Of a stretch of 14,428 bases of DNA, positions 316-14,330 are shown piece after piece. This stretch comes from Bordetella parapertussis (lineage in GTDB: Bacteria > Pseudomonadota > Gammaproteobacteria > Burkholderiales > Burkholderiaceae_B). Made by a program: the position numbers and the translations under genes. Each line of letters starts with the position of its first letter. Within the stretch, counting starts at the first letter, position 1. The notes beneath the pieces are model-generated. The model did not search any database and was not told the origin of the DNA. It saw nothing but the letters and a program-made list of their open reading frames with translations. The stretch spans positions 1 to 14,428 of the forward strand of contig CAMCYB010000042.1 of NCBI GenBank assembly GCA_945883615.1. Reading direction: 5' to 3'.

Positions 316-1509
316 CTAATGACCTAACACAATGGGAATTTCAGTTGCAGGTGGTGTATTACGGCTGCGCCCGCAGCGAACTAGGCCGTCAATCATCACC
401 ATACCAATGCCTGGAATATCGCCAAGCTGAATGCTCTCAAGCACGTTCTTTCCGGCTGTATGTTGGGCTCTATCAATAAATACGAAATCAGCAGCACGAC
501 CGGTTTCAATGAGGCCACTGTTTAAATTTCGCATGCGTGCCGTGTTACCTGTCGCGAAACAAAATACCAGTTCGGCAGGTATGTTGCCAAGGCTAGAAAG
601 CAATGAAATTAAGCGCAACATGCCTAACGGTTGAACGCCAGAACCCGCAGGTGAGTCGGTGCCCAAAATGACTCGGTGTGGGCATTTCAGATCCAGTGCG
701 GCTTTGGCCGCAGCGATGGCTATTTTCTCGTTGCCGTTATGAACAATTTCAATGCCTCGGCTTGAGCGCTCGCATAGTTCGCAAACATGTGCTTCAGATA
801 AAGACGTATGGCCGCCATTGATATGCCCGATAATGTCAGCATCAGCTTCGAGCACAACATCTTTATCTATTAACCCTGACCCAGGAATAGAGGGCCCACC
901 CGTATGAATGGTGCTTTGTATACCGTACTTGCGTGCCCAGGCTACCATTTTTTGTGCTTCTTCACCGGCCTTGACTGAGCCTAAACCCACTTCCCCCAAC
1001 AACGAAACGCCAGCTAGTGCAAGCTCACGAAAATCGTCTTCTACCATGCCTTTTTCAATAATAGGTGCGCCTGCAAGAACCTTCACGCCACCCGGTCTAA
1101 AATTGTCAAAGGCACGCTGTGCGGTGATGGCGAGTGCTTTGAGGCCAACAATATCTTTAGGTCGACCCGGTAAGTGCACTTCACCTGCAGAAATCATTGT
1201 GGTGACGCCGCCGTGAAGGCTTGATTCGATCCAGCCGAGTTGGTTTTGTCTGGGTGTCCAGTCACCAAACACAGGGTGCACATGACTATCGATGAGGCCG
1301 GGGGCCAAGCAAACCCCTTTGGCATCTATAACTGTCTTGGCGTGAGCGGTGTCACAGTCTTTATGCAGACCCACTGCTGTGATGATGCCGTCTTGCACGA
1401 TGACTGTATCAGCTGAAAGAATAGGCTGATCGAGGTCGCCTGAGAGCATGAGCCCAACGTTGTGTATAACAACTTTGCCTGATTTGTCTGATGCTGCGAC
1501 GTCAGCCAT
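316..1509 (-). CDS. ena: Enamidase (1,4,5,6-tetrahydro-6-oxonicotinate amidohydrolase)
   Basis: Cytosolic amidohydrolase-superfamily enzyme that opens the ring of 1,4,5,6-tetrahydro-6-oxonicotinate to give 2-formylglutarate and ammonia. The 397-residue protein resembles the Eubacterium barkeri enamidase closely over its whole length, with shared blocks such as HGGVTTMISAG (99-109), PGRPKD (114-119), GEVGLG (172-177), HTGG.SIPGS (202-211), HINGG (229-233) and SRNTPPA near the C-terminus. Predicted metal ligands are H76 and H78 (the HVH motif), the bridging E173, which replaces the usual carbamylated lysine, H202, H229 and D285. The E. barkeri enzyme is known to bind Fe and Zn. The start has a GAGG ribosome binding site inside the last codons of the TetR gene, whose stop is only five bases upstream, so the two are likely translated together. 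Nothing appears truncated. Confidence 0.93.
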   Translation of the reverse strand: MADVAASDKSGKVVIHNVGLMLSGDLDQPILSADTVIVQDGIITAVGLHKDCDTAHAKTVIDAKGVCLAPGLIDSHVHPVFGDWTPRQNQLGWIESSLHGGVTTMISAGEVHLPGRPKDIVGLKALAITAQRAFDNFRPGGVKVLAGAPIIEKGMVEDDFRELALAGVSLLGEVGLGSVKAGEEAQKMVAWARKYGIQSTIHTGGPSIPGSGLIDKDVVLEADADIIGHINGGHTSLSEAHVCELCERSSRGIEIVHNGNEKIAIAAAKAALDLKCPHRVILGTDSPAGSGVQPLGMLRLISLLSSLGNIPAELVFCFATGNTARMRNLNSGLIETGRAADFVFIDRAQHTAGKNVLESIQLGDIPGIGMVMIDGLVRCGRSRNTPPATEIPIVLGH

Positions 1510-2215: not shown

Positions 2216-2989
2216 TTATTGGTCTGCAAAAGCGCGTTCAATCACAAAGTCAAAAGGTGTTGATGTATTGCCTTCTTTAAACCCACGCGCTTCAAGTATA
2301 TGCTTGAGGTCGCGCAACATGGCAGGGCTTCCACAAATCATACCCTTATCGTATTCAGGATGCAACGGTGGTACACCGAGGTCAGTAAACAGTTTGCCAC
2401 TTTCAATGAGCGCTGTGATGCGCCCCTCGTTACGAAACGGCTCGCGCGTAACAGTAGGGTAGTATTTGAGTTGTTTTTTAACCATTTCACCTAAAAATTC
2501 ATGTTCAGGAAGTACCTGCGTCAAATAGTCGTGGTACGCCAACTCTTTAACTTCGCGAACGCTATGAATAAGGATGACCTCAGAAAATTTTTCGTAGGTT
2601 TCAGGGTCGTGAATGAGGCTCATGAAAGGCGCGAGACCTGTACCTGAACTGAACAGGTACAAACGCTTGCCGGGAAGCAGGTAATCGATAAGTAAAGTGC
2701 CAGTTGGCTTACGACCCACAACGATTTCATCGCCTGGCTTAATATGCTGCAGACGAGATGTCAAAGGGCCGTTGGGCACCTTAATGCTCAAAAATTCAAG
2801 GTGTTCATCATGGTTCGCGCTAACGAGACTATAAGCACGAAGCAAGGGTTTACCATCAATCATTAACCCAATCATTGTGAAATGACCATTTTTAAACTTA
2901 AGAGAGGTGTCTCGAGTGGTGGTGAAAGAAAAGAGACTGTCAGTCCAGTGATGGACGGTCAAAACTTTTTCTGAGTTGAGTGCGCTCAT
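2216..2989 (-). CDS. fpr: Ferredoxin--NADP+ reductase, bacterial Fpr type
   Basis: A 257-residue cytosolic FAD enzyme that moves electrons between NADPH and ferredoxin or flavodoxin. The FAD-binding motif RAYSLVSA is at 51-58, a ribityl/pyrophosphate region around SIKVPNGPLTSRL at 68-80, the NADP-binding GTGLAPFMSLI at 116-126, and CGSPAML at 219-225. The C-terminus (FVIERAFADQ) is of the bacterial Azotobacter/Pseudomonas Fpr class. Length is normal for the family. A ribosome binding site AGGA lies eight bases upstream of the ATG. As the first gene of the operon that also encodes enamidase, it probably supplies reduced ferredoxin to 6-hydroxynicotinate reductase, encoded divergently. The E. 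barkeri reductase is ferredoxin-linked, so the pairing is reasonable, but no ferredoxin gene is present in the window. Confidence 0.9.
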   Translation of the reverse strand: MSALNSEKVLTVHHWTDSLFSFTTTRDTSLKFKNGHFTMIGLMIDGKPLLRAYSLVSANHDEHLEFLSIKVPNGPLTSRLQHIKPGDEIVVGRKPTGTLLIDYLLPGKRLYLFSSGTGLAPFMSLIHDPETYEKFSEVILIHSVREVKELAYHDYLTQVLPEHEFLGEMVKKQLKYYPTVTREPFRNEGRITALIESGKLFTDLGVPPLHPEYDKGMICGSPAMLRDLKHILEARGFKEGNTSTPFDFVIERAFADQ

Positions 2990-3237: not shown

Positions 3238-4827
3238 ATGGAACATACCAAAACAGATGGGCTACCTGAAGAAGGCCTGCCAACCAGTGCAATTCAGGTT
3301 GCAGAACAAAGCCCCCAAGAGCAAAAATCAAACGGTAAAGTTGAATGTAATGCGTGTCCTGTTCTATGCAAGATTAGTGTAGGCCGGACAGGTGCCTGTG
3401 ATCGTTATGCCAATAACCAAGGTCATTTAGTTCGGGTCGATTCAGTCATCTTCCTGCAAAAAAACTTTGAGGGTAGTAACCCACAGAAGCCTACCGCGTT
3501 TGTGCACATTGATGCTGCAAACCCTGAGGGTTGGAATGGCGATGTGTTACATGCCAACAATGCATTTGTAACCGGCATTGGTGCATCGACAACATACCCT
3601 GACTACAAGCCTGCACCTTTTATTGTCAGCTCTCAGTATGAAGGTGTTGACACCGTCACGGTGGTTACAGAGGGTATCTTTAGTTACTGTAGCTTTAAAA
3701 TTAAAATTGATACCGATCGGTATTTAGGGCCTGAACAGGCTAATGTGCGTTGTGAAGGTGAGGTAGTGGGTCATGTGACCACAGCTGAATATGGTTCGCA
3801 AATGCTGTCGCTTGGTGGGGTTCATCACCTAACGGGCGGCAGTAAAAAAGAAGGTAAGGTCACCATGAACATGATGGCTGCCTTGGGTAATAAGCAAGCT
3901 GTTGAGTTGGCCATTGACGGGGGTGCAACCATGATTATTCAGGCGGGTAAAGCCCCAATAGTTAATGGTGTGCCAGAGCAACGTATGCGTGTGGGCTGCG
4001 GCTCAGCAGCAGTGGGAATTTTTGCGCAACAATTTCAGGGTTTGGTCGATGAGGTTGTGGTGGTTGATGATCACATTACAGGTGTGCTCACCGAGCATCA
4101 GGCTGGCAAGTGCCTCAATATGCGTCGTTCGGGCATTGTGATGCGTGGCCGGCGTTCGACGCCAGGCAGGTATTTTCAGGTGGCTAACCCCGGTACGGGT
4201 TGGGGCGGAACCGATATCGCTGACCCCTTGTCAATAATTGAAAGTTGGGACACAGAGTACGCATGGCCAGGGCTGCGCCTACTCATGACTTCTACGACAG
4301 GTGAACATGCGAATTGGTATCGCTTAAATGATGCCTTGCAACCAGAACAAGAAGCGATGCCTGTTGAGGTTCGTCAGATCGTTGATCGTATTGGTGAAAA
4401 CTGTGAGCCCTCAATGGTGTCGGTACTTTTTCTTGCTGGTGCCGGCGGCAGTTTACGCGCAGGTGTCACGACAAATCCAGTTAGCTTAACTCAGTCAATC
4501 AAAAAATCGCTTGTTAATGTGACCTGTGGTGGGGCGCCTGCCTACGTATGGCCAGGCGGTGGCATCACAGTCATGGTTGATGTGATGGGTATGCCAGATA
4601 ACAGTTTTGGTACTGTGCCAACCCCTGCAATTGTTGCCCCAATAGAGTTCACCATGCGCTTATCCGAGTACGCGGCACTGGGTGGGCATATGGATTACGT
4701 TCAAACGATGGAATCGGTACTTCGTGCAGGTAGCTGGCATCAAGACGGCGCACCCTTGACTCGCGTTTGGCAACCCTTGGCATCGCAACATACATGGCCG
4801 ATTGGGCAGCCGCCCATGTTGGGTTAA
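3238..4827 (+). CDS. hnr: 6-hydroxynicotinate reductase (iron-sulfur flavoprotein)
   Basis: Reduces 6-hydroxynicotinate to 1,4,5,6-tetrahydro-6-oxonicotinate, probably with electrons from ferredoxin. Numbered from the ATG at 3238, the protein has 529 residues. A cysteine cluster C37-x2-C40-P-x2-C44 with C54 in GACDRY is a [4Fe-4S]-type motif. Other cysteines are at 151, 172, 254, 292, 389 and 430. Glycine-rich blocks (LSLGGVHHLTGGSKKEGK at 190-207, YVWPGGGI at 436-443) are conserved-looking. The E. barkeri enzyme is known to carry covalent flavin; possible attachment sites here are D227-GGAT and GAST around 115-118. An in-frame TTG at 3226 is an alternative start, and neither start has a good ribosome binding site. 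Enamidase across the divergent promoter carries out the next step, which supports the call. The family assignment is from recall of the family and context, not alignment. Confidence 0.85.
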   Translation: MEHTKTDGLPEEGLPTSAIQVAEQSPQEQKSNGKVECNACPVLCKISVGRTGACDRYANNQGHLVRVDSVIFLQKNFEGSNPQKPTAFVHIDAANPEGWNGDVLHANNAFVTGIGASTTYPDYKPAPFIVSSQYEGVDTVTVVTEGIFSYCSFKIKIDTDRYLGPEQANVRCEGEVVGHVTTAEYGSQMLSLGGVHHLTGGSKKEGKVTMNMMAALGNKQAVELAIDGGATMIIQAGKAPIVNGVPEQRMRVGCGSAAVGIFAQQFQGLVDEVVVVDDHITGVLTEHQAGKCLNMRRSGIVMRGRRSTPGRYFQVANPGTGWGGTDIADPLSIIESWDTEYAWPGLRLLMTSTTGEHANWYRLNDALQPEQEAMPVEVRQIVDRIGENCEPSMVSVLFLAGAGGSLRAGVTTNPVSLTQSIKKSLVNVTCGGAPAYVWPGGGITVMVDVMGMPDNSFGTVPTPAIVAPIEFTMRLSEYAALGGHMDYVQTMESVLRAGSWHQDGAPLTRVWQPLASQHTWPIGQPPMLG

Positions 4828-4836
4828 GACACATAC

Positions 4837-5763
4837 ATGTCGCACATCTGCAAAATACTATCAGGCAATCGCCAGCACTTTCAGCATGGAGGCAATCGCC
4901 AGCACTTTCAGCATGGCCCGATTGACTTGTTGATTCAAGCAGAAGGAGACCCTATCGCGGTGCAAGATGCGCATGTGCATGCAAGCAAACAGTTTGCTGA
5001 GGTGCTACCCACCCTGGTGGGTGAGTTGAGTCGGTTGCGACAACCCGTTCGCGCAGGCGCTCCGAATACATTTGTTGGGCCCGTGGCCAACCGCATGTGG
5101 CAAGCATGTCGACCCTTTGTCAATGAGAATTTTATTACCCCCATGGCAGCCGTTGCAGGCTCAGTTGCCCAATACATTCTTATGTCATACCAAGTGCCTG
5201 GCATAAAACGTGCTTGGGTTAACAATGGTGGTGACATTGCATTGTATTTGACGCGTGGTACACAATTACAACTGGGTTTGTTTAGCGATTTGTCACGCGC
5301 AATCCCTTCAATTTTGACAGCACAGTTACCCGACCTAGATGGCATGGCATCGATTTTCGCTGGGTCAGGCATTGGCGGCGTGGCCACCAGCGGTTGGGCG
5401 GGTCGAAGTCATTCGCTGGGCATTGCTGACAGCGTGACCGTTTTTGCGTCTGATGCCGGTTTGGCTGATGCAGCAGCAACCATTTTGGCGAATGCCGTAA
5501 ATGTTGACGATGATTTAATCGTTCGTCAGCCCGCTAACAGTTTGTCAGATGACACAGATTTAGAAGATCGCTTGGTTACGGTTGAAGTCCCTAAATTAGA
5601 TCGCTCTCAAGTTGCTCAGGCGTTGTCATTTGGTTTAAAAAAAGCGCAAACTTATGTTGATAATGGTTTGCTGCAGTCTGTTGTGTTGATGTGTCAAGGT
5701 CAAGTGGTATCGGCAACTCGATTGAATGCCCGTATAAAAGAGAGCGCGTTATGTCATCAATAG
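4837..5763 (+). CDS. UPF0280-family, ApbE-like protein; possible flavin transferase for Hnr
   Basis: A 308-residue protein of the UPF0280 family, which is structurally related to ApbE (FMN transferase). Visible motifs are QHGPIDLLIQA (25-35), WVNNGGDIALYLT (127-139, the ApbE-type N-x-GGD block), GVATSGW..RSHSLG (181-195) and ADAAAT (210-215), equivalent to the ApbE ADalaT motif whose Asp and Thr bind metal; here D211 and T215. There is no signal peptide, so it is cytosolic, unlike most periplasmic ApbE proteins. It starts nine bases after hnr, with no clear ribosome binding site, and overlaps the next gene by 13 bases. A perfect 27-base tandem duplication near the start repeats GNRQHFQHG, so residues 10-18 and 19-27 are identical. 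Function is unproven; attaching flavin to Hnr is an inference from fold and position. Confidence 0.85.
   Translation: MSHICKILSGNRQHFQHGGNRQHFQHGPIDLLIQAEGDPIAVQDAHVHASKQFAEVLPTLVGELSRLRQPVRAGAPNTFVGPVANRMWQACRPFVNENFITPMAAVAGSVAQYILMSYQVPGIKRAWVNNGGDIALYLTRGTQLQLGLFSDLSRAIPSILTAQLPDLDGMASIFAGSGIGGVATSGWAGRSHSLGIADSVTVFASDAGLADAAATILANAVNVDDDLIVRQPANSLSDDTDLEDRLVTVEVPKLDRSQVAQALSFGLKKAQTYVDNGLLQSVVLMCQGQVVSATRLNARIKESALCHQ
4863..4916 (+). repeat. Perfect 27-bp tandem duplication inside the UPF0280 gene
   Basis: Positions 4863-4889 and 4890-4916 are identical, both beginning AGGCAATCGCC and ending CAGCATGG. The repeat adds nine codons in frame (GNRQHFQHG twice) just before the family motif GPIDL. 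Identity at every base, including third codon positions, points to a recent event. Confidence 0.95.
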
Positions 5764-6338
5764 TCATTAGAAAAATTGCTGTGAGTGTGGAAGAAACACA
5801 TGTCGAGATGGGTCAAATGATCTCGCCACCCACTCGGCGGGCAGTGGCCATAGCCGTGATTCAAAACCCCTATGCCGGGCGCTACGAAGAAGACTTGAGT
5901 CTGCTTATTGATGCGGGCGAAATGTTGGGTGGTCTGCTTGGTCAGCGTTGCGTGCAGGCATTGGGCATCGCACCCCATGAGGCACAAAGTTATGGCAAGG
6001 CAGCCATTGTTGGCGAGCGTGGTGAACTCGAGCATGCAGCGGCCATTTTGCACCCCAAGCTGGGTGCACCATTACGCAAAGCCTTTGAAAAAGGGGCTGC
6101 ACTCGTACCTTCATCAAAAAAACGCGGTGGCCCAGGCACCCCAATTGACGTACCGCTCGGCCATAAAGATGCGGCGTTTGTAAGAAGTCACTTCGATGCA
6201 ATTGAGGCACGATTAACCGATGCCCCCGCTGCCGATGAAATTTTGGTCGCTGTAGCGGTTACAGATAGTGGTAGACCTTTGCCCCGTTTAGGCGGGTTGA
6301 AAGTGAGCGAAATTAAGGGTGAAGATGGTTTGAGGTAA
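5751..6338 (+). CDS. AA_synth-family protein (PF06684-like), function unknown
   Basis: A 195-residue soluble protein of the family named amino acid synthesis, for which I know no proven reaction. Blocks visible are IRKIAVSVEET (6-16), IQNPYAGRYEEDLS (37-50), YGKAAIVGERGELEHAAAILHP as 81-102, KKRGGPGTPIDVPLGHKDAAFVRSH (123-147) and a C-terminal ILVAVAVTDSGRPLPRLGG (164-182). The start at 5751 is preferred over an in-frame ATG at 5691 because the family begins M-x-x-I-x-IRK, and an AGAGAG ribosome binding site lies just upstream. It overlaps the UPF0280 stop by 13 bases, so the two are translationally coupled. A second member of the family, broken by an insertion sequence, sits at the end of the enamidase operon (147-236). 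Position suggests a role in nicotinate breakdown downstream of Hnr. Confidence 0.85.
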   Translation: MSSIVIRKIAVSVEETHVEMGQMISPPTRRAVAIAVIQNPYAGRYEEDLSLLIDAGEMLGGLLGQRCVQALGIAPHEAQSYGKAAIVGERGELEHAAAILHPKLGAPLRKAFEKGAALVPSSKKRGGPGTPIDVPLGHKDAAFVRSHFDAIEARLTDAPAADEILVAVAVTDSGRPLPRLGGLKVSEIKGEDGLR

Positions 6339-11100: not shown

Positions 11101-11592
11101 ATGAGAAAGCCAGCTGATATTATTTTGCAAGTCAACGGCATACAGCGCGCTGTGACGGTGTCACCTGACGCAAGTTTGTTGTTTGTGTTGCGTAATGATT
11201 TGGCACTTAACGCACCTAAGTATGGTTGCGGCCTCGGGCAGTGTGGCGCCTGCACAGTGTTGATAAATCGTGTGGCTGCTCGCGCCTGCGTTATACCCGT
11301 CGGTGAATTGGGTCAGCGCAGTGTGACAACCTTAGAAGGTTTAGCGAGGGGCGAGATCTTGCACCCAGTGCAGGCGGCTTTCATACAAGAGCAAGCTGCC
11401 CAATGTGGTTATTGTTTGAACGGCATGATTATGACCGTTGTTGCGTTACTCGAGCGTGTACCCGAGCCTACCGAGCAGCAGATTACCGACGCCTTATCAG
11501 GAAATATATGTCGTTGCGGTACCCATGTTGAAATCATGGCGGCAGCTCTTCAGTCGGTCACGCTACTGGCTCAGACTGAGTCTCGTTTATGA
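11101..11592 (+). CDS. nicA: Nicotinate dehydrogenase, small [2Fe-2S] subunit (NicA type)
   Basis: A 163-residue iron-sulfur subunit of a xanthine-oxidase-family hydroxylase, transferring electrons from the molybdenum subunit. C43, C48, C51 and C63 (YGCGLGQCGACTV) bind the plant-ferredoxin-type [2Fe-2S] cluster, and C102, C105, C137 and C139 (QCGYCLNGM, NICRCGTH) bind the second cluster in the helical domain. Length matches P. putida NicA (about 157 residues). A reading frame extends upstream to 10987 inside livF, but the ATG at 11101 fits the family and lies just after the livF stop. The ribosome binding site is weak (AGACAG). It overlaps nicB by four bases. With NicB it is predicted to make 6-hydroxynicotinate; related hydroxylases for isoquinoline or aldehydes share the architecture, so the substrate rests on the hnr and ena neighbours. 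Confidence 0.88.
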   Translation: MRKPADIILQVNGIQRAVTVSPDASLLFVLRNDLALNAPKYGCGLGQCGACTVLINRVAARACVIPVGELGQRSVTTLEGLARGEILHPVQAAFIQEQAAQCGYCLNGMIMTVVALLERVPEPTEQQITDALSGNICRCGTHVEIMAAALQSVTLLAQTESRL

Positions 11593-14330
11593 GTTCATCA
11601 GACCGCTTTCGCACACGGGCTGATTTTTTGCAGGCTCAAGAAGTTCTGCTCGTTTTACGTGAACCGCCACCCCCAATGCCGGCAAGCCCTGGCCAACCTT
11701 TTTCTGTGGGTGCTAACCCCCTAGAAGGCGATGAGGTGTTGTTGGCTGTTTGGCCTGACGGTTCAGTTATTGCGCTTCATGGTCACGTTGATTTGGGAAC
11801 GGGGCTTAGAACGGCGTTGTCACAGCTTGTGGCTGAAGAACTTGATGTGGCCCTGTCGCAGGTCAAAATGATTATGGGTGATACGGCTACATCACCCAAC
11901 CAAGGCGCAACCATTGCCAGCGCTTCCATTCAAATTCATGGTGCGGTGCTCAGACAGGCTGCTGCCCAAGCGCGTGCCTATCTGTTGGCGCAGGCTGCAA
12001 ACACGTTAAAGCGGCCCATCGAAGACCTGCAGGTGCGTGACGGTCTGGTAACGTGTACGCAAGATGAAACGATTCGCTTGTCGTATGGCGAGCTCGTGCG
12101 GGGTGCGCAGGTTGCTTTACGACTCGACCCCAGCGTTGCGCTCAAAGACTTTCGTGATCATCGCGTTGTGGGTCAATCGGTGCCACGTGTCGACATTCCA
12201 GCCAAAGCGCGTGGGGAACTGACTTTCGTGCATGACATGAGAATGCCCGGCATGTTGCACGGGCGTGTCATACGACCACCCTACGCAGGTGCAGATCACG
12301 GCGACTTTATTGGCAACACGCTTGAGTCTGTTGATCAGTCGTCCATCTCACATATTCCGGGTGTGGTGGCAGTGGTTATCATTCGCGATTTTGTTGGGGT
12401 AGTGACTGAAAGAGAAGAGCAGGCTGAGGCGGCGATGCGTGCGCTCGCTGTTCGCTGGAAGCCTTGGCCTGGCTTACCCGATGTGAATGATATAGAGAAT
12501 GCGCTTCGCAATAACCCCTCTGTGCCACGCGAGTTAGTGAACGATGGTGATGCCCCGGGCGAAATCGAAGCGGCGGGTGACGGTTTAAGCCGAACGTATC
12601 TTTGGCCTTATCAAATGCACGCGTCGCTAGGGCCCTCATGTGCTGTGGCAGACTGGCGCAAACCAGAAGATCAAAGCGACCAAGACCCCTTTGCGTTACG
12701 CATTTGGGCCGGTACACAAAACCCTCATGTGTTGCGAGCTGATCTAGCGCGCTTAACCGACCTTGAAGACATCACTGTTGATATTGTTCGCATGGAAGCC
12801 TCGGGCTGTTATGGCCGCAACGGCGCTGATGACGTGGCGGCAGACGCTGCGCTACTGTCTCGCGCTGTGGGTGCACCCGTTCGTGTGCAACTTTCGCGAG
12901 AGCAAGAAAACCTGTGGGAGCCCAAGGGCGCTGCCCAATGGATGCAGGTTGCAGGCGCAGTGACTGATGGTCGCATTAACGCGTGGGATTTCTCAACCTC
13001 TTACCCCTCAAATGGTGCGCCACCGTTGGCGCTATTGCTAACACGTACCATTGAACCAAATGCGCAAGCCTATTTTATGGGTGACCGCACTGCCCGCCCA
13101 CCTTATACCGTGCCCAACTTGCGGGTAACCGTTAATGATATGCCGCCTATTTTGCGGGCTTCTTGGCTTCGTGGTGTGTCGGCGCTACCTAATTCTTTCG
13201 CGCATGAATCGTTTGTCGATGAGTTGGCCACGGCCGCTAAAAAAGATCCGGTTGCATTTCGTTTAAGCCATCTTGATGATCCGCGTGCCAATGAACTACT
13301 CAAAGAGACCGCGCTTCGTGCAGGTTGGCAGCCGCGCACAGGCCCTCGTTTAATAAAGGGCGAGAACGGTTTATTACAGGGGCAGGGCGTTGCCTATGCT
13401 CGCTATGTTCACAGTCGATGGCCTGGGTTTGGTGCCGCGTGGGCCGCTTGGGTTGCAAATGTCGAAGTAAACCCGAATACCGGTGAAGTTCACGTTCGTA
13501 AAGTGGTGGTCGGTCACGATGCGGGTTTGACGATTAACCCGGCGGGTGTTGAGCACCAGATTCATGGCAATGTCATTCAGGCCACGAGTCGTGCGCTACG
13601 CGAGAAAGTCACCACTGAGCCCATAAAAAACACAGTCGCCACGCAAGAGTGGGGTTCATACCCGGTACTCAGTTTTCGGCAGGTGCCCGTTATTGAGGTC
13701 TATCAGATGCCGCGGCCTGAAGAGCCTGCACTCGGTGCCGGTGAATCGTCTTCAGTGCCGGGTACTGCGGCTATCGCCAACGCGATATTCGACGCCACAG
13801 GCGTGCGGTTTCGTCAGCCCCCTTTTACGCCTGAGGTAATTAGAGCCGCGCTGAACCCATTACAGGCGCCACAAAGTGAAAGCGAACCCTATGATGATCA
13901 GCGCAACACACCTCAGCTATTTTTAAAAACACCTTCAAAACAAGCTGTTTACCCCCGACGCAAATCTATGGTTTGGCGTGGTTTGGCGTTATTGGTGGGA
14001 ACAGTGAGTGTTGTGACCGGTGTGTTGGGCTGGCGCAGTGTGATTGCGCCTATTGAACGTTCTTCAGTCAATTTGTACTCAGTAGAAACCATCATGCGTG
14101 GTAAGCAATTATCTGCATTGAGCAACTGCGCCACCTGTCACACGACTGTCGATGGCCAGAAATATGCGGGTGGCGTTGCTTTACCCACGCCATTTGGCAC
14201 TATTTACACCACCAACATCACACCAGACCCTGAAACAGGTATCGGCAATTGGTCATTGGCGGCATTTGAACGTGCCATGCGTCCTGACTTCTGCCAATCT
14301 ACCCAAGATTTACTGAGCAAAGAAAAATAA
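11589..14330 (+). pseudogene. nicB: Nicotinate dehydrogenase, large molybdopterin/cytochrome c subunit (NicB type), 3' truncated
   Basis: The large subunit of a NicAB-type hydroxylase, here 913 residues against roughly 1,190 in P. putida NicB. Molybdopterin motifs are present: DLGTGLRTALSQ (68-79), GDTATSPNQGATIAS (97-111), a hammerhead region around 190-310, and GAGESS with the catalytic-type E719. A membrane-spanning segment lies at about 796-816, followed by the first haem motif CATCH (847-851) and the typical FGTIYTTNITPD. Family-like sequence ends at R898 (base 14282); the last 15 residues do not fit the family and stop at 14330. NicB of P. putida has three haem motifs, so at least two are lost. 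There is no N-terminal signal; the single membrane segment would place the haem domain in the periplasm. Whether the shortened product works is unknown. Paralogous substrates remain possible. Confidence 0.85.

What the first reader, a model, noticed from the sequence alone, without database searches (positions are those of the whole stretch)
4837..5763. UPF0280 protein as a dedicated cytosolic flavin transferase for 6-hydroxynicotinate reductase
E. barkeri Hnr is known to carry covalently bound flavin, but no attachment enzyme is assigned as far as I know. UPF0280 proteins share the ApbE fold, and this one keeps N-x-GGD and ADAAAT with the metal-type Asp and Thr (D211, T215). It starts nine bases after hnr. 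ApbE joins FMN to Thr/Ser in motifs like D-G-x-x-G-A-T/S; Hnr has D227-G-G-A-T and a second G-A-S-T at about 115-118. Together this gives UPF0280 a concrete, testable job.
Basis: partly seen in the sequence, partly recalled or inferred. Interest (0 to 1): 0.8.

Follow-up and report, generated by a model that had tools for sequence, protein, structure and literature searches.

The report
Obligate partner protein of nicotinate reductase
A small protein of unknown job, built like enzymes that glue flavin onto other proteins, is encoded right after the enzyme 6-hydroxynicotinate reductase and in the bacteria surveyed is hardly ever found without it, so it probably prepares that enzyme, perhaps by attaching its flavin.

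The parts
4837..5763 (+). UPF0280 protein (308 aa), proposed dedicated maturation factor of Hnr
5221..5235 (+). codons 129-133 N-N-G-G-D; N129, G131, G132, D133 invariant in 34 of 34 aligned sequences
5386..5394 (+). codons 184-186 T-S-G (Ser185 aligns with the ApbE TSG; correspondence to Vc Ser241 inferred); the ApbE His loop that should follow is missing
5464..5481 (+). codons 210-215 A-D-A-A-A-T, ApbE-type metal-site Asp211 and Thr215
4863..4916 (+). exact 27-bp tandem duplication (GNRQHFQHG twice), absent from the 15 relatives aligned
3238..4827 (+). 6-hydroxynicotinate reductase (Hnr), 529 aa from ATG 3238; name as given by sources for its relatives
3346..3399 (+). Hnr C37-x2-C40-x3-C44-x9-C54, Fe-S-cluster-like motif, invariant in 95 of 95
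3580..3612 (+).
3916..3930 (+).
2216..2989 (-). ferredoxin-NADP reductase-like protein, likely electron donor (inferred)
316..1509 (-). enamidase (match to enamidase 2vun, E 5e-108), the step after Hnr
5751..6338 (+). AA_synth (PF06684) protein, start overlaps the UPF0280 end; function unknown

Best explanation
The UPF0280 protein is a cytosolic maturation factor dedicated to Hnr. SHOWN: one co-directional gene pair, near-perfect co-occurrence with hnr in the Pseudomonadota sampled, ApbE fold of the model, conserved metal-site Asp211/Thr215, N-x-GGD and Ser185, no conserved Cys, and loss of the ApbE catalytic-His loop. INFERRED: with a divalent metal it binds a nucleotide cofactor, most likely FAD, and transfers its FMN part (or helps it bond) to Hnr, giving the covalent flavin that the E. 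barkeri enzyme is reported to carry (recalled). Because the His base and the ApbE target motif are both absent, the site is probably not DGGAT. Thr118/Thr119 in the G-x-x-T-T-Y-P-D-Y-K-P loop are the best candidates. The NADPH-ferredoxin reductase encoded beside it would feed electrons through the Cys4 cluster to that flavin.
Against: The segment with ApbE's catalytic His (HHIxDPxTG) is missing, and window His192 is Phe in 28 of 34. The helical insert is about 34 residues against 103 in T. maritima ApbE. Price et al. [quoted passage not shown] No ApbE motif in 267 Hnr sequences. The window protein itself does not reach PF02424. A 2025 paper still calls MA1715, the M. acetivorans member, a sulfur trafficking protein (PMC12068725, passages). 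Covalent flavin in a Pseudomonadota Hnr: none found in my searches (library of limited scope). No Bacillota genome could be searched.
Confidence: 0.5

Rival explanations
1. UPF0280 is a dedicated Hnr accessory, but not a covalent transferase: it binds or hydrolyses FAD/ATP, delivers flavin non-covalently, or acts as an assembly chaperone, and Hnr flavinylates itself or binds flavin reversibly.
For: Same obligate pairing; metal and N-x-GGD sites kept but His base lost; no ApbE target motif in Hnr. Many covalent flavins form autocatalytically (general knowledge).
Against: The pocket residues are invariant, which fits catalysis or ligand binding; nothing found here positively points to a chaperone.
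Confidence: 0.28
2. UPF0280 supplies sulfur or Fe-S clusters to Hnr, as proposed for COG2122 with DUF39 in homocysteine synthesis.
For: COG2122 is required with DUF39 in Desulfovibrio, fitness r = 0.98 (PMC5764234); MA1715 is called a sulfur trafficking protein (PMC12068725); Hnr has an invariant Cys4 motif.
Against: No conserved Cys in Pseudomonadota UPF0280 (best column 10 of 34), whereas the M. voltae member is reported to have a C-terminal Cys cluster (PMC9431491). DUF39 is in 0 of 398 sampled Pseudomonadota genomes.
Confidence: 0.11
3. UPF0280 is a catabolic enzyme or a structural subunit of the reductase, not a maturation factor.
For: It lies in a catabolic operon, often with a 4-bp overlap (20 of 36 loci by automatic gene calls), which suits subunit stoichiometry.
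Against: It follows hnr even on the 10 of 26 plasmids without an enamidase match (enamidase elsewhere in those genomes was not excluded). The E. barkeri reductase was, as I recall, described as one kind of protein.
Confidence: 0.1
4. The protein is a canonical ApbE that attaches FMN to Hnr Thr231 in DGGAT.
For: Fold and metal residues.
Against: Thr231 is Gln in 41 of 95 sequences; Asp at -4 instead of -6; strict motif in 0 of 267; His loop missing.
Confidence: 0.01

Closest known systems
ApbE / Ftp / FmnB flavin transferases (PF02424)
   Different: Lacks the HHIxDPxTG segment with the catalytic His and most of the helical insert; window protein not detected by PF02424; target motif absent from the partner; no signal peptide seen by eye (no predictor run)
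COG2122/UPF0280 proteins MA1715 and DvMF_0044 (homocysteine/sulfide assimilation)
   Different: Partner there is DUF39, absent from the 398 sampled Pseudomonadota; the Cys cluster reported for the M. voltae member has no counterpart here; partner here is Hnr
Cytoplasmic ApbE of Klebsiella serving a soluble fumarate reductase
   Same: Cytosolic factor serving a cytosolic redox enzyme, as described in PMC12052999
   Different: That one is an ApbE whose target carries the standard recognition motif
6-hydroxynicotinate reductase of Eubacterium barkeri
   Same: Family name and pathway place; the SG-6C homologue is 42% identical (PMC3511419)
   Different: Cofactor content of the Pseudomonadota enzymes unknown to me; whether E. 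barkeri has UPF0280 was not testable here

Membership tests
UPF0280 / NF003322 | Score over the curated equivalog cut-off (290 bits) | tested here: met
   342.6 bits
ApbE flavin transferase (PF02424) | ApbE fold | tested here: met
   [not shown]
ApbE flavin transferase (PF02424) | PF02424 match over gathering score | tested here: not met
   No PF02424 hit listed for the window protein at E up to 10; 25 of 34 members of A2 hit at E up to 1, best 5.6e-6
ApbE flavin transferase (PF02424) | Metal-site Asp/Thr in ADxxxT and TSG Ser | tested here: met
   Asp211, Thr215, Ser185 in 34 of 34; profile alignment
ApbE flavin transferase (PF02424) | Catalytic His in the HHIxDPxTG loop | tested here: not met
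   Loop absent: ATSG-to-VTV 20 residues in 33 of 34, one without the pattern; TSG-to-V[TS]V/I 35-39 in the five of eight ApbE where it could be measured
ApbE flavin transferase (PF02424) | Helical insert of about 100 residues in the first T-fold | tested here: not met
   Residues 68-101 of the model against 88-190 in T. maritima ApbE; pocket function not tested
ApbE flavin transferase (PF02424) | Target motif D-x-x-[ST]-G-A-[ST] in the partner | tested here: not met
   0 of 267 Hnr sequences
ApbE flavin transferase (PF02424) | FMN transfer from FAD | not testable with these tools
   Needs biochemistry
COG2122 sulfur-assimilation proteins | Presence with DUF39 (PF01837) | tested here: not met
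   PF01837 in 0 of 398 genomes, 32 of which have UPF0280
COG2122 sulfur-assimilation proteins | Conserved Cys for persulfide or Fe-S | tested here: not met
   Best Cys column 10 of 34
6-hydroxynicotinate reductase (partner) | Nicotinate-pathway context | tested here: met
   Enamidase 2vun E 5e-108; Mo hydroxylase genes
6-hydroxynicotinate reductase (partner) | Covalent flavin | not testable with these tools
   Known to me from recall for E. barkeri only

The most novel reading that the evidence does not exclude
UPF0280/COG2122 is a family of cofactor-attaching enzymes that keep the ApbE metal site but use a different base and target signal. Each lineage is dedicated to one unusual redox enzyme (Hnr in Pseudomonadota, DUF39 in archaea and Desulfovibrio) and modifies it, in Hnr on the Thr118/Thr119 loop. 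The 'sulfur trafficking' phenotype of COG2122 would then be a cofactor-attachment defect of DUF39.
Probability: 0.25. Interest if true: 0.88.

Novelty: new variant of a known kind. Interest (0 to 1): 0.68.

Why it matters
An uncharacterised family gets one defined partner and a test that needs two genes. It would name the missing maturation step of a ring-reducing enzyme in vitamin B3 and chloronicotinate breakdown, which matters for expressing that enzyme elsewhere. It would also reopen the meaning of the COG2122 requirement in homocysteine synthesis. If the ApbE fold attaches flavin without the known catalytic His and target motif, motif-based surveys miss such targets.

Tried and rejected
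Rejected: Thr231/DGGAT as an ApbE site. ApbE itself as the general attachment enzyme (no match in 5 of 14 hnr genomes; completeness is not told, and G003 is a MAG, so absence there is weak). A homocysteine role with DUF39 in this phylum. Chance adjacency (hypergeometric p about 1e-47 and 1e-74, inflated because species are not independent).

Rows dropped: L039 from the Hnr alignment (stop codon inside my coordinates); L012, L020, L026, L027, L035 (closely similar or duplicate), L018, L029 and L007 were also left out of A3, which holds 27 of 36 loci plus the window; L012, L019, L020, L035 were left out of A2, which holds 33 of 37 plus the window. Ten of 18 ApbE loci failed my ORF filter, leaving 8 (the first run, used 5 of 14). 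The 267 Hnr sequences are 239 proteins from two capped lists of 120 (of 8000 scored in each search) plus the 28 of A3.

Full report
OBSERVATION. The window is a nicotinate-type catabolic cluster of an Alcaligenaceae-like bacterium (inferred); the closest loci are Alcaligenaceae MAGs, with Hnr 85% and 95% identical. It holds enamidase (-; solved relative 2vun, E 5e-108), TetR (-), a ferredoxin-NADP reductase (-), then on the + strand hnr, UPF0280, AA_synth PF06684, a branched-chain-type ABC transporter and 2Fe-2S/Mo hydroxylase genes. UPF0280 spans 4837-5763, nine bases after hnr, and scores 342.6 bits on NF003322 (cut-off 290).

PARTNERSHIP. Two samples of species-level genomes were searched with Hnr (E <= 1e-10) and with NF003322 (E <= 1e-5). 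Pseudomonadota, 398 genomes: Hnr in 32 and UPF0280 in 32, the same 32, with UPF0280 directly downstream on the same strand in 32 of 32. Alphaproteobacteria, 385 genomes: Hnr in 67, UPF0280 in 68; all 67 overlap and 66 are adjacent. In G607 the two matches lie on different contigs. The extra genome G528 has a 29.5-bit match below the cut-off. The samples share 4 hnr genomes, so 95 distinct ones. In 72,556 plasmids, 26 carry Hnr and 27 UPF0280 (E <= 1e-5). All 26 Hnr plasmids carry UPF0280, same strand, at most 521 bases from the Hnr match by the listed coordinates. The 27th, Hydrogenophaga pBPS33-1, has four UPF0280 places; in the two that I read UPF0280 follows IS1071 or an unannotated stretch in its place, and the small ORF before it reads as the Hnr C-terminus (residues 467-499, E 1e-3), so it is a truncated hnr-UPF0280 pair. 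In 20 of 36 fetched loci my automatic gene calls overlap by 4 bp (L003 and L012 are the same genome).

CONTROL FOR PATHWAY. On the same plasmids enamidase (E <= 1e-20) accompanies Hnr in 16 of 26 and also occurs on 9 plasmids without Hnr; a copy elsewhere in those genomes was not excluded. The neighbouring AA_synth is on 388 plasmids and the ferredoxin reductase (E <= 1e-20) on 105. Of these four neighbours of hnr only UPF0280 is restricted to Hnr plasmids, apart from the one with the stump. In Pseudosulfitobacter, Hnr-UPF0280 sits beside hydantoinase genes with no enamidase in view. So UPF0280 belongs to Hnr rather than to the pathway.

HNR. 0 of 267 Hnr sequences hold the ApbE motif. Thr231 is Thr in 36 and Gln in 41 of 95. 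Thr118 and Thr119 are invariant in 95 of 95, and the stretch G-x-x-T-T-Y-P-D-Y-K-P-A-P is intact in 261 of 267. This loop lies in a low-confidence part of a weak model (mean pLDDT 69; segment 112-126 under 50). Conserved Cys: 37, 40, 44, 54 (cluster-like) and 151, 254, 389; a Cys-linked flavin is therefore also possible. No known fold was found.

COMPARISON. Price et al. 2018 (PMC5764234, passages) report that COG2122 is required with DUF39 for homocysteine synthesis in Desulfovibrio. They cite work, not seen here, that the ApbE homology stops short of the flavin-binding region, and a proposal that COG2122 aids persulfide modification. A 2025 paper calls MA1715 a sulfur trafficking protein (PMC12068725, passages). 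That partner is absent here (PF01837 in 0 of 398) and no Cys is conserved, while a methanogen member is reported to have a C-terminal Cys cluster (PMC9431491, passages). [quoted passage not shown] In this library 'UPF0280' occurs in 0 papers, '6-hydroxynicotinate reductase' in 2, 'COG2122' in 4, and 'hydroxynicotinate' with 'covalently bound flavin' in 0; a wider ApbE/nicotinate search listed 20 of 33 papers, of which I saw titles and the starts of abstracts. The library lacks most subscription papers, so this is weak evidence of novelty.

VERDICT. Dedicated Hnr factor: very likely (about 0.85). Covalent flavin attachment: best mechanism, about 0.5, unproven. It is a UPF0280 member with an ApbE fold; it should not be filed as an ApbE, because the PF02424 score, the His loop, the helical insert and the target motif were tested and not met. 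That lowers 'it is an ApbE', not 'it works like one'.

Noticed in passing
window 4863-4916: Exact 27-bp tandem duplication adds 9 residues (GNRQHFQHG) near the UPF0280 N-terminus; absent from the 15 relatives aligned with it.
   Followed up: partly
L005 (NZ_CP044550.1) 4023-5028 and 14832-15837: Repeated units with IS1071 in Hydrogenophaga pBPS33-1 carry UPF0280 with an hnr stump, a Rieske protein and a PDR/VanB oxidoreductase.
   Followed up: partly
window 11589-14330: Mo-hydroxylase large subunit ends at 913 aa just after a CxxCH cytochrome c motif; the L006 homologue is 1267 aa by its coordinates, so this frame may be cut short by a frameshift or real truncation.
   Followed up: no
L007 1-9944: Hnr-UPF0280 pair beside hydantoinase A/B genes and no enamidase in view; Hnr may act in a second ring-opening route.
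   Followed up: no
[not shown]
   Followed up: partly
window 5751-6338: AA_synth (PF06684) protein of unknown function follows UPF0280; the solved relative 2qtp is very close (E 4e-90) yet named uncharacterised.
   Followed up: no
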